Below, piece by piece: positions 59,397 to 63,462 of a stretch of DNA of 64,000 bases. Position 1 is the first letter of the stretch. Every line of letters begins with the position of its first letter. The position numbers were made by a program, and so were the translations under genes. Origin of the DNA: Lampris incognitus (taxonomy: Eukaryota > Chordata > Actinopteri > Lampriformes > Lampridae); contig NC_079215.1 of NCBI RefSeq assembly GCF_029633865.1, forward strand, positions 56,346,856-56,410,855. Reading direction: 5' to 3'. The notes beneath the pieces were generated by a model. That model was not told where the DNA came from. It saw only the letters and a list, made by a program, of their open reading frames with translations, and searched no databases.

Positions 59397-60000
59397 TGTC
59401 GCGGTTTTTCTATAGCCCGGATAACTATGGATGGAGGCGGGGACTTTTAGGTGCGACAAACCGGGCTTCACCACCGTTAGCTAGATAGCTGCGCCAATGC
59501 TAGGGCTGGCCTGCTAGTTAGCTAGTTAGCCGTGTGCTAATGGGTTAGCAAGCTCACCTTGGGACCAGGGCTGGTGATGGAACAGGGCGGCTGAGCTCTA
59601 GGCGGGGCGGGAGATGGATGGCTGCTCTCCGGGGTGCGTGTCTCTCTCTCTCTCCGTACTCTGGCTCCGGCGTGACCGGGTGAATGTCTCTCTCAGTCTC
59701 TCTGGGGAAGCTCACGGGGGTAGTCAGCTAGCTACAGGTACCGAGGCAGTCTGCTGCTAACACTACCACTGCTAGCCACCGTATCTGCTGTCTAGCCCAG
59801 GATACGCTAGGTTTCCCTGCTCTATCCCACGCTAAGGTGACAGTCTACGATATGGTTGCTAAACAGTTCTGGCCTTTGTCTCCCCCGCGGTGTCTAATAT
59901 AGTTGCGTCTGTGACAGCGCGAGCTAACCTGTGATTGGTCCTCTAGCTGCACGTGCCCAGTGCAACAGTCCAAGTACATCCCCAGGCATTTCCCACTACA
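59397..60000 (-). repeat. 3' LTR of Gag-PHIP element
   Basis: 604 bp, starting in sense with TGTAGTGGGAAATGCC at 60000 and ending ACCGCGACA at 59397. It contains the same CCAAT and TATA-like sequences as the 5' LTR. Confidence 0.96.
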
Positions 60001-60013
60001 CTGCCCCCCTCCA
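60001..60013 (-). other. Polypurine tract
   Basis: In sense TGGAGGGGGGCAG directly precedes the 3' LTR, as needed for plus-strand priming. Confidence 0.85.
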
Positions 60014-60219
60014 GCACTGTTGAGTCCCTTCAACATAAATGAACAACAGACTACAAAGATCAGTCTGATTAATCTAACACGATAAACGGGACAGAACACC
60101 CGCGAAATGAACTAGGCCCGGAACAAAGGGCGTCAAACAAATGTGGGTGGTCGCTATCCATACTGGACTCTTGTGACTAGCCTAGTAACCCCCAAGTCAA
60201 CTAGTCACGTCCGTCAAAG

Positions 60220-62673
60220 TTAGTCTAGGAGCCAGGCGGGCCTCCGGACTGGCCGGCCCCGTCTGGTGGTGTACGGGAGATGGGACTCAGCGGCGTCGGC
60301 TTCGTCTCCTTCTGGGTCAGGGGCGTTGGACTGCCCGCCCGGAGCACAGGCTGCTGTCCCACGACGTTGGGTGATTGTCGACTCGCCTGAAGAGTAGCTG
60401 GCAGCAGTGTGTTGGAGCGGCTGGAACCGAGCCGGGGAGCCTGGTGTGCTGGGTCCTCCATCGTCGTTTGCGTGGAACAGGTCCTCCAGCCGGAGATCAA
60501 GGTCTTCATCGATCTCCTCCTGCTCTGTCACTCCTTCGTACTCCTCTGTTCTCTGCGCCCCCGGCTCCTCCATGTCAGCAGCGGGAGGACCTCCTTCAGG
60601 TGTTTCCTGCGGCCCTATGGCTGGTGCTGGAGCAGACAACAGAGCATGGCGCCTGTCATCTGTGCCCCAGATCTTCACCAGGCAGTCATCTGAGCCCGTG
60701 AAAATGCGTCGCCCGGTGCGGTCGAAGGTGACACAGTAGACAGAGGAGAGATGTCCCAGAATCCTCTTGTGCATCTTCATGTGCTGGTAGACAGCTGTAG
60801 GCAGTAGCTGGCGTAGACGGTAGGAGCCATTGAGCCGACGCCCATTGCTCGTCTCCACGATATTGGGTGGACTCCCATAGATAATAGGAGGCTCTGGGGG
60901 TCGTCCACAGTGCAGAGCAGCCAGCGCTGAGCCCTTCCACACAACATGCTTGCAGCTCTTGTTGGTACGCAGGAGGTTCTGCCTGCCGGCTCCCAGGATG
61001 CTGTGGAGACCAGGCACGCTGGCAGGAACCTCTTTCTCCAGCAGTGGACATACTCGAGAACACACTTGGAGTAGGTGGTCTGGGCTGATGTGCCTGTGCA
61101 ACTTCACCTTGTTAATGTTGTCGATGCCACTGGCCAGGGTCTTGAGCTCGGGGGTGCTCAAGCTGTCTCCTACCGGCGGAGGACTTGGAGAGCTATCGCG
61201 ACGCCGCTCGTCTTCCCATGCTACTCGCCGGACTCTCCCCCCTCCTTCAACCTCTCGCCCCAGCGTCGCTCCAAAGTCATACTCGCGTGCCTCAACCTTC
61301 CTGATTGCTTCAGCTAGTGTTTTGGGTTCTGCCCCCAGGACTTCATACGCGATGTTTTGGTTCTTCAGCCCGCGCAGAAAGGCTTCTGCAGCGTAGGCCT
61401 CCTGCAGTGTAACACCAACCCGCGGGTATGCCAGTGTGACAAGTCCCCTCACTTCCTCGCCAAACGCATAGAGGGTCATCTCTCTGGCCTGCTTAACCTC
61501 GCTGAGTTTACGGCGCGCAGTTCCCCCAGGCAGCTCTTTACCGTAGCGGCGGCGTAACTGGGTGATGAGCGCGTGGTAGTCATCTTTTATCGGAGCCGGC
61601 TGCGCGATGACAAAAGACATGGCGTTGTCCCTCAGTCGGAGATACAAGGCGTCCAAACAGGTCTCGTCGGTCCAGCCCCTCTTTCTCGCCATCCGTTCGA
61701 ATGGTCCAACGAAACTATCCCAGTCGCCCTTACCATCAAAAGTGGCGAGGAGCTTGATGTCATTTTCGTGTCCTCGGTCGGGACCTTGTGAGCTTCGGTT
61801 GCCGCTCCGACTTTGAAGGTCTCCTGTCTGGCTCTGTTGACCTCTAGAGGAACCTGCCTGCCCTCCAACGCTGTCATCCAGCAGGTTTCGGCCGCCGTTG
61901 CTGTCCAGGGACATTTGGCCACCCTGCATCCCGTCGGGGGGTGGTACTGCAGTCGCTCCATTTTTTCCACCATGACCGATCGGAGTGCTGGTAAGTGGTG
62001 CGGGCTCACTGGGTCCATTTCCTGTATAGCGCAGGGCTGCTGGGGCCGCTTTGCTGCTCGGCCTGGCTGGCGTCTCCTCATTGCGCCGGTCGCTCAAGTT
62101 AGCCACTGCGCCCATAGCTGCTGGCAACAGGTGATCAGCGCCATCTCGCTGTCTGGCCCCTGGGTTCTCCCGGGCCGGGGTGAACTGCGAGAGTAGGCCC
62201 ATGTCTTGCACCGTTCTGCTAGTTCGTTCTCCGAGCACAGCCCCTGCCGACCCTACACAACTATCGCTTTGAGGGCCACCAGGAGAAACCCCCTGCTTCA
62301 CCACTTGAGCGATGGGCGACAAACCGGGAGGCTCACCCCGGATATCCGAACGATGACGGGCCCAATCGGCGCGCTGAATGGGAGGTGTGGGGGGACGAAA
62401 TCGCTTAGCCACCGCCTCCGCTAGTCCATCGATATGCGCTGTGAGGGCCTCCATCTGCATCTCTATCTGGCGTTGCATCTTAACCTGGGCCTGGCGTTCC
62501 ACGTTTTCCATCTGGCGTTGCATCTGAACCTGGGCCTGGTTCATGGTTTCCATCTGCGCCAGGAGGAGCTTCATCCAGGCGTGCTCTCCGGGGTCTTCGG
62601 TCCCCACACCAGCACCATCCAGACTCAACTCAGACTGTTCTTCTACATCTCCCTTGTCCTGTGACATTTTCAC
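60220..62673 (-). CDS. Gag-PHIP fusion protein, 817 codons, intact
   Basis: The frame is open without a stop. Residues 1-95 are Gln/Met-rich and likely coiled; 96-300 are Pro/Ser-rich; about 305-480 are a retrotransposon Gag capsid-like domain (LLATFDGKGDWDSFVGPFER, LRRRYGKELPGG, LRGLKNQNIAYEVL). From about 520 to 675 the sequence is the N-terminal part of PHIP (a BRWD family protein): ISPDHLLQVCSRVCPLLEKE, LLRTNKSCKHVVWKGSALAA, AVYQHMKMHKRILGHLSSVY, then the first WD40 repeat ending CLVKIW. Wording is closer to PHIP than BRWD1 or BRWD3. After an acidic linker the last 20 or so residues (TTRRGRPVRRPAWLLD) look like a Gypsy pol C-terminus. Thus spliced host sequence replaced most of pol. No zinc knuckle is seen. 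In its host gene this region helps chromatin and CUL4 adaptor functions; a role here is unknown. Confidence 0.93.
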   Translation of the reverse strand: MKMSQDKGDVEEQSELSLDGAGVGTEDPGEHAWMKLLLAQMETMNQAQVQMQRQMENVERQAQVKMQRQIEMQMEALTAHIDGLAEAVAKRFRPPTPPIQRADWARHRSDIRGEPPGLSPIAQVVKQGVSPGGPQSDSCVGSAGAVLGERTSRTVQDMGLLSQFTPARENPGARQRDGADHLLPAAMGAVANLSDRRNEETPARPSSKAAPAALRYTGNGPSEPAPLTSTPIGHGGKNGATAVPPPDGMQGGQMSLDSNGGRNLLDDSVGGQAGSSRGQQSQTGDLQSRSGNRSSQGPDRGHENDIKLLATFDGKGDWDSFVGPFERMARKRGWTDETCLDALYLRLRDNAMSFVIAQPAPIKDDYHALITQLRRRYGKELPGGTARRKLSEVKQAREMTLYAFGEEVRGLVTLAYPRVGVTLQEAYAAEAFLRGLKNQNIAYEVLGAEPKTLAEAIRKVEAREYDFGATLGREVEGGGRVRRVAWEDERRRDSSPSPPPVGDSLSTPELKTLASGIDNINKVKLHRHISPDHLLQVCSRVCPLLEKEVPASVPGLHSILGAGRQNLLRTNKSCKHVVWKGSALAALHCGRPPEPPIIYGSPPNIVETSNGRRLNGSYRLRQLLPTAVYQHMKMHKRILGHLSSVYCVTFDRTGRRIFTGSDDCLVKIWGTDDRRHALLSAPAPAIGPQETPEGGPPAADMEEPGAQRTEEYEGVTEQEEIDEDLDLRLEDLFHANDDGGPSTPGSPARFQPLQHTAASYSSGESTITQRRGTAACAPGGQSNAPDPEGDEADAAESHLPYTTRRGRPVRRPAWLLD
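60649..61116 (-). other. Captured PHIP segment (spliced)
   Basis: About 156 codons homologous to PHIP without introns, though the vertebrate gene is intron-rich over this region. It is in frame with Gag upstream and with the pol-like tail downstream. Boundaries are within roughly 15 codons. Confidence 0.88.
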
Positions 62674-62840
62674 TTTTCCACTGATTTACGTGACTGCTGA
62701 AGAAATTACAGTGCTTCACAAAACGGCTGACTCACTCAGTTGCTAGCTGGGTTAGCTCACAGTGTGCAGGCTGAATTATGCCGCCATGTGACCGGGGCAG
62801 GATCCTCCGGTGTTGAGATTATGGCGAATCCCAACCTTTT

Positions 62841-62858
62841 ATCCCACTTCTGACACCA
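62841..62858 (-). other. Primer binding site, tRNA-Leu(CAA)
   Basis: In sense TGGTGTCAGAAGTGGGAT, two bases after the 5' LTR. It is the complement of the 3' end of vertebrate tRNA-Leu(CAA) with CCA added (from memory). Confidence 0.9.
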
Positions 62859-62860
62859 CT

Positions 62861-63462
62861 TGTCGCGGTTTTTCTATAGCCCGGATAACTATGGATGGAG
62901 GCGGGGACTTTTAGGTGCGACAAACCGGGCTTCACCACCGTTAGCTAGATAGCTGCGCCAATGCTAGGGCTGGCCTGCTAGTTAGCTAGTTAGCCGTGTG
63001 CTAATGGGTTAGCAAGCTCACCTTGGGACCAGGGCTGGTGATGGAACAGGGCGGCTGAGCTCTAGGCGGGGCGGGAGATGGATGGCTGCTCTCCGGGGTG
63101 CGTGTCTCTCTCTATCCGTACTCTGGCTCCGGCGTGACCGGGTGAATGTCTCTCTCAGTCTCTCTGGGGAAGCTCACGGGGGTAGTCAGCTAGCTACAGG
63201 TACCGAGGCAGTCTGCTGCTAACACTACCACTGCTAGCCACCGTATCTGCTGTCTAGCCCAGGATACGCTAGGTTTCCCTGCTCTATCCCACGCTAAGGT
63301 GACAGTCTACGATATGGTTGCTAAACAGTTCTGGCCTTTGTCTCCCCCGCGGTGTCTAATATAGTTGCGTCTGTGACAGCGCGAGCTAACCTGTGATTGG
63401 TCCTCTAGCTGCACGTGCCCAGTGCAACAGTCCAAGTACATCCCCAGGCATTTCCCACTACA
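62861..63462 (-). repeat. 5' LTR of Gag-PHIP element
   Basis: 602 bp. Nearly identical with the 3' LTR, so insertion is recent. Confidence 0.96.
63352..63405 (-). promoter_or_regulatory. Likely Pol II promoter of Gag-PHIP element
   Basis: In sense GACCAATCACAGG (a CCAAT box) is followed about 35 bases on by CTATATTAGAC (TATA-like). Spacing suits a Pol II promoter. Contrast the tRNA-type boxes in the neighbouring TRIM LTR. Confidence 0.6.

What the first reader, a model, noticed from the sequence alone, without database searches (positions are those of the whole stretch)
59397..63462. Recently inserted LTR retrotransposon with a Gag-PHIP fusion
Seen: near-identical LTRs, exact 4-bp target duplication, primer site, polypurine tract and one intact 817-codon frame. 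The middle of that frame is spliced PHIP coding sequence in frame between Gag and a pol-like C-terminus. Known: host gene capture by LTR elements is documented (retroviral oncogenes, maize Bs1) but is rare. Inference: the PHIP piece (N-terminal helical part plus first WD repeat) may be kept because it steers the Gag particle or integration toward chromatin.
Basis: partly seen in the sequence, partly recalled or inferred. Interest (0 to 1): 0.93.

Follow-up and report, generated by a model that had tools for sequence, protein, structure and literature searches.

The report
Jumping element carrying stolen PHIP exons
In what looks like a ray-finned fish genome, an LTR retrotransposon has had nearly all of its enzyme genes replaced by a spliced piece of the host gene phip, in frame with its capsid gene, and has then spread to more than a hundred places, while a relative with its enzyme genes and the donor gene are still present in the same genome.

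Summary
Window 59393-63466 (minus strand) is an LTR retrotransposon with a 4-bp target duplication and one frame, Gag-PHIP-integrase tail. The PHIP piece is 61107-60655 (151 codons): 94% to a teleost PHIP, about 65% to BRWD3. Over the 250 nt that could be compared it differs from the same genome's phip gene by one silent base and lacks an intron. The fusion is not unique: the exact 5' junction occurs 121 times, the 3' junction 111 times. The 40 copies examined share both junctions, sit at different sites, and 27 keep the full 815-codon frame. At 77 places the same gag continues without PHIP; the one such copy read further has protease, RT, RNase H, integrase and the identical tail. The 5' junction falls exactly on a phip exon start; the 3' junction is mid-exon in two BRWD paralogs. 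Best reading: retrovirus-style capture of spliced host RNA by a Ty3-type element, giving a pol-less derivative that (inferred) moves in trans. 'PHIP steers to chromatin' is not supported: bromodomains are absent, the piece alone is not predicted to fold, and capture is too recent for dN/dS. Unexpected: subfamily A carries 26 sense-strand A>G changes in gag, an ADAR-like signature.

The parts
59393..59396 (.). target site duplication CTAC (low-coordinate side)
59397..60000 (-). 3' LTR, 604 bp
   Evidence: LTR pairs in all 40 copies
60001..60219 (-). 3' untranslated region with polypurine tract next to the LTR (GGAGGGGGG at 60004-60012)
60220..60654 (-). C-terminal tail of the pol frame (follows the integrase C-terminal domain), stop codon at 60220-60222; identical to a PHIP-less pol-bearing copy over the 429 nt of 60220-60648, with identity starting at 60654
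60655..61107 (-). captured PHIP coding sequence, 151 codons (PHIP residues 64-214 in P0007/P0008 numbering): end of BRWD1_N, linker, first WD repeat
61108..62667 (-). gag, 520 codons: N-terminal part and linker, then capsid region (relatives align from residue 307 of the 817-codon frame); zinc knuckle lost
   Evidence: zinc knuckle present in the PHIP-less copy
62668..62860 (-). leader with primer-binding-site-like sequence at 62841-62858
   Evidence: sequence; tRNA match not tested
62861..63462 (-). 5' LTR, 602 bp
63463..63466 (.). target site duplication CTAC (high-coordinate side)

Best explanation
A non-autonomous derivative of a one-frame Ty3-type gag-pol retrotransposon. SHOWN: compared with a PHIP-less copy, 4,035 nt of the frame (end of gag with zinc knuckle, protease, RT, RNase H, integrase, up to the integrase tail) are replaced by 453 nt of spliced host phip coding sequence, in frame at both joints; both junctions are the same in all 40 copies examined, so one capture event; the exact 5' junction occurs at 121 places, the PHIP-less gag continuation at 77. 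INFERRED: the 5' junction was made at RNA level by splicing a cryptic donor in gag (AACAAG|GTGCT) to the acceptor of a phip exon; the 3' junction was made by reverse transcriptase jumping between templates inside a phip exon; the product keeps LTRs, PBS, leader, gag and PPT and moves with enzymes supplied in trans by PHIP-less relatives. PHIP is most likely a passenger that fills a shortened genome.
For: Copies, junctions, TSDs. Donor gene with intron and acceptor ..tttccag|GTGAAGTTG; 22 of 120 database gene models also diverge exactly at this residue. PHIP-less copy: zinc knuckle, protease, RT, RNase H and integrase downstream of gag, tail identical over 429 nt; all 77 PHIP-less places read AACAAG|GTGCT at the joint. 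In both BRWD paralogs the exon runs unbroken through the 3' junction site. The PHIP-less copy shares subfamily B's base at 9 of 9 LTR sites and 34 of 35 comparable gag sites (3 further rows dropped as alignment ends), so B looks like the original capture lineage.
Against: No remnant of the element was found in the readable 5.3-kb phip intron upstream of the captured exon, as a read-through origin would suggest; other phip introns were not read. The donor is weak (6 of 9 recalled consensus positions). GGTG at the joint is shared by element and mature phip mRNA, so two template switches could give the same product. Movement in trans is inferred from structure only; no expression data. Only one PHIP-less copy was read beyond gag.
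Confidence: 0.82

Rival explanations
1. Same end product, but both junctions arose by template switching between packaged element RNA and mature phip mRNA; the exon boundary at the 5' joint is a coincidence of the 4-base shared GGTG.
For: Shared bases at the 5' joint; LTR-mediated retroposition by template switching is described in animals including zebrafish (PMC5408686, passages); no element insertion in the readable phip intron.
Against: Exact coincidence with an exon start. With one boundary per about 125 nt and about 5 possible joint positions I estimate roughly 4% by chance (own estimate from two exon lengths).
Confidence: 0.35
2. The PHIP piece works for the element, for example by steering Gag or integration, or by docking to the CRL4 ubiquitin ligase.
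For: Both joints in frame and the same in all 40 copies; 27 of 40 copies keep 815 codons, 29 of 40 lie between 800 and 835; deleting residues 1-161 of PHIP abolishes CRL4 binding (PMC13057301, passages) and the capture covers 64-161 of the corresponding numbering; WD40 is named among PHIP's histone-code readers (PMC10463337, listing); PHIP copies outnumber PHIP-less ones by exact strings (121 to 77).
Against: Bromodomains absent; the piece starts and ends inside domains and is not predicted to fold alone; too young to show constraint; the 6 of 92 PHIP pieces with a length change are all out of frame, as neutral decay would give.
Confidence: 0.1
3. Assembly artefact or a single duplicated locus.
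For: None found.
Against: The 40 copies have different flanks apart from low-complexity or weak matches between two pairs; 35 of 40 have exact 4-bp TSDs.
Confidence: 0.01

Closest known systems
Maize Bs1 retroelement
   Same: LTR element that transduced host gene pieces and formed a hybrid coding region (three host genes; PMC13317346, passages)
   Different: Plant; three donors. Here one donor, one event, a vertebrate, over 100 places, with a pol-bearing relative and the donor gene in the same genome.
Acutely transforming retroviruses (gag-onc proviruses; recalled)
   Same: Spliced host exons replace pol in frame behind gag; one joint at an exon start and the other within an exon fits the recalled transduction model; helper needed.
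   Different: Not a retrovirus, no env seen; inherited and amplified in a genome; no effect on the host cell shown.
LTR-mediated retroposition / retrocopies (PMC5408686, passages)
   Same: mRNA sequence brought between LTRs through template switching.
   Different: Those are described as retrocopies; this became a multi-copy family with Gag fused to the host piece.
Gag-only non-autonomous LTR elements such as TR-GAG (recalled)
   Same: Keeps LTRs, PBS, PPT and gag, lacks pol.
   Different: Pol is replaced by host exons rather than merely deleted.

Membership tests
LTR retrotransposon | paired LTRs, short fixed-length TSD, PBS, PPT | tested here: met
   (35 of 40 exact 4-bp TSDs); PBS and PPT by sequence only, tRNA not matched
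Ty3/gypsy (Metaviridae) | protease-RT-RNase H-integrase order in pol | tested here: not met
   absent in the window copy, present in the one PHIP-less relative read; so the relative is Ty3-type and the window copy a pol-less derivative
Ty3/gypsy (Metaviridae) | RT phylogeny | not tested
   no tree was built
Non-autonomous derivative of a pol-bearing element | shared LTR, gag and 3' end with a pol-bearing copy in the same genome | tested here: met
   gag 97.4% over 1,554 nt; tail 100%, UTR 98.6%, LTR 97%
Host-gene-transducing retroelement | donor gene with introns in the same genome, introns missing in the element, single fusion | tested here: met
   only 250 of 453 nt could be compared with the donor
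Host-gene-transducing retroelement | captured product changes the host cell | not testable with these tools
   no expression data
PHIP chromatin reader | bromodomains and BRWD_AD region present | tested here: not met
   bromodomain best match 1133-1214 and BRWD_AD 926-994 of P0007; captured 64-214

The most novel reading that the evidence does not exclude
The captured stretch carries part of the region of PHIP needed to bind the CRL4 ubiquitin ligase, so Gag-PHIP acts as a decoy or recruiter of CRL4 (or interferes with PHIP-CRL4 control of NuRD silencing) and this is why the derivative is now found at more places than its PHIP-less relatives: a retrotransposon that stole a ligase-docking piece.
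Probability: 0.06. Interest if true: 0.93.

Novelty: new variant of a known kind. Interest (0 to 1): 0.76.

Why it matters
Host gene capture by retroelements is usually reconstructed long afterwards. Here the donor gene, a pol-bearing relative, the apparent original capture lineage (B) and a derived lineage (A) coexist in one vertebrate genome, young enough that the host piece in B is still identical over the 250 nt compared. That makes the old question of how retroelements take up cellular exons (splicing versus template switching) directly testable, and shows that such a chimera can become as numerous as its relatives. The A>G-rich subfamily is also a case where RNA editing may have founded a successful lineage.

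Tried and rejected
BRWD3/BRWD1 as donor: considered from recall, rejected. A 15-nt micro-exon at the 5' joint, suggested by database gene models: rejected by the genomic exon. Recombination as the explanation of the A/B pattern with P 1.8e-8: withdrawn, because 26 of 35 gag differences are A>G and not independent; without A>G sites P is 0.0065. A hit for a PHIP-less gag end elsewhere was a chance match. Other fusions at the same 3' joint: 0 exact strings preceded by A or T. Relatives in viral contigs: none by tblastn. PMC5638112 held 'phip' only inside an author's name. dN/dS of PHIP: not estimable.

Selection bias: the 40 copies are the best-scoring of 128 first-look candidates by identity in the PHIP piece, so mutation counts in PHIP and the intact-frame fraction are optimistic. 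Exact-string counts are lower bounds and use strings of different length.
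Full report
What is there. The element lies on the minus strand at 59397-63462 with 4-bp target copies outside it. The LTRs differ by one repeat-unit indel and one substitution. A single frame, 815 codons from its ATG, covers most of the interior. Its first 520 codons are Gag: P0001, a protein with gag, protease and integrase tail, aligns at 52% over 228 aa; Pfam's own gag model is weak here (E 0.017, below cut-off). The next 151 codons are PHIP (E 8e-95; best 94% to Echeneis naucrates PHIP; BRWD3 proteins about 65%; 120 of 414 matches were listed and seen). 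The last part is the tail that follows the integrase C-terminal domain in the relative.

Copies. A search of the window's own genome (1.48 Gb, 537 contigs) with the 468-base piece that spans both junctions scored 40 of 128 first-look candidates; all 40 match over the whole length with 0 or 1 difference. All 40 were read with both LTRs: 35 of 40 have an exact 4-bp TSD, 27 of 40 keep 815 codons (29 of 40 between 800 and 835), and flanks differ apart from a low-complexity match and one weak match. Exact strings: end of gag 189, 5' junction 121, 3' junction 111, PHIP-less continuation 77; controls 0. Of the first 100 listed 5' junctions, 92 have a listed 3' partner: 86 of 92 have the full spacing and 6 are shorter by 1, 1, 1, 2, 2 and 7 bases (recounted).

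Donor. The phip gene was found by PHIP sequence outside the capture. Two captured exons are readable. The first begins ..tttccag|GTGAAGTTG, exactly where the element changes from gag to PHIP; the second follows a 296-base intron that the element lacks. Over these 250 nt the window differs at one base, silent (CGA/AGA). Subfamily B copies have the host's base. The other 203 nt of the capture lie in a 5,000-base run of N and could not be compared; it may be an assembly gap or a withheld stretch.

Relative. One PHIP-less copy was read downstream of gag: an open frame of 1,515 codons in the part fetched, with zinc knuckle, aspartic protease, RT, RNase H and integrase domains, ending in a tail identical to the window's over 429 nt. 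Relative to it the PHIP element lacks 4,035 nt. The other 76 places were not examined beyond the joint.

How it arose. At the 5' joint all 77 PHIP-less places read AACAAG|GTGCT, so a GT follows the joint, as a splice donor needs; the phip side is a real acceptor. At the 3' joint the paralogous exons on two other contigs run through the site, and the relative's bases just before the joint do not match PHIP's; phip's own exon there is unreadable. Splicing for the first joint and a reverse-transcriptase jump for the second is therefore my preferred order. Two jumps remain possible. No element remnant was seen in the readable phip intron.

What PHIP may do. The captured residues 64-214 take the end of the N-terminal domain, a linker and the first of the WD repeats; bromodomains and BRWD_AD are far away. 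Alone the piece is predicted with pLDDT 36.8; in a 521-residue PHIP control (mean 69.2) the propeller is mostly above 80 and the linker 82-183 is below 50 (both with 22-row alignments, which is shallow). Papers: chromatin binding through bromodomain and cryptic Tudor (PMC6050238, passages); WD40 named among the histone-code readers (PMC10463337, listing); deletion of PHIP 1-161 abolishes CRL4 binding (PMC13057301, passages). A passenger role is the simplest reading; a CRL4-linked role is the boldest that is left.

Two subfamilies. 20 of the 40 copies (A, the window's kind) differ from the other 20 (B) at 35 fixed gag sites and 9 LTR sites, yet at 1 site of 1,116 in the PHIP, tail and UTR pieces. 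The PHIP-less copy has B's base at 34 of 35 comparable gag sites (three rows at the alignment end dropped) and 9 of 9 LTR sites. Of the 35 gag changes, 26 are A>G on the sense strand and none T>C (P 3e-8); in the LTR the changes are mixed, 3 A>G and 3 T>C of 9. No A>G falls on the 141 A's of the middle of gag or in PHIP, tail or UTR. Protein relatives carry the B residue at codons 403 (3 of 5; an A>C site), 410 (4 of 5) and 468 (4 of 5); the A residue appears once, at codon 418. So A is derived. Private changes are about symmetric. Editing of RNA by an ADAR-type enzyme fits, but the expected neighbour preference is not significant, the LTR does not show it clearly, and the non-A>G sites still show a deficit in PHIP-tail-UTR (P 0.0065), so exchange may have played a part. 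In an earlier, smaller count 22 of 31 fixed gag changes altered an amino acid, pN/pS 0.79, no sign of strong constraint. A-type gag was found at 27 exact places; for 24 of 27 a PHIP piece is listed beside it or 47 (one of them with the host's base), the other 3 were beyond the listed rows. Among the first 100 of 121 rows, 26 carry A's base, 73 B's, and one is the host gene.

Age. Mean LTR pair difference is 1.15 substitutions in A and 2.7 in B, about 0.19% and 0.46%. With rates of the order of 1e-8 per site and year (recalled) that is of the order of 100,000 to a few 100,000 years.

In print. Searches for BRWD3, PHIP, captured genes and LTR elements in the held library (listings, plus passages of the papers named) showed no such element. 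Only these searches were made and most subscription journals are not held. One search on editing of LTR elements was seen as a listing only.

Noticed in passing
gag piece of L031-L069, L076 and window 61117-62673: Subfamily A carries 26 sense-strand A>G and 0 T>C fixed changes in gag against B and a PHIP-less copy, clustered in two parts of gag: an ADAR-like editing signature in a lineage that then amplified.
   Followed up: partly
window 18482-20722 (-): Two adjoining intronless frames match the myosin tail (Pfam E 2e-170 and 3e-111; closest solved structure for the first is Myosin-9): looks like a broken retrocopy of a non-muscle myosin heavy chain gene.
   Followed up: partly
35 exact TSDs in L031-L069 and the window: 32 of 35 target duplications have a central TA (ATAT, GTAC, GTAT and the like), a clear integration preference.
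   Followed up: partly
window 5352-8245 (-), 12842-14074 (-), 40626-41105 (-): LINE-type reverse transcriptases, an endonuclease and a Tc1-type transposase by Pfam.
   Followed up: no
window 53292-56973 (+): Five frames of 129-304 codons in a row on one strand; the three tested have no Pfam match above cut-off (one sub-cut-off match, E 0.0042); perhaps an undescribed mobile element.
   Followed up: no
window 63822-63895: Perfect (AG)37 repeat beside the element.
   Followed up: no
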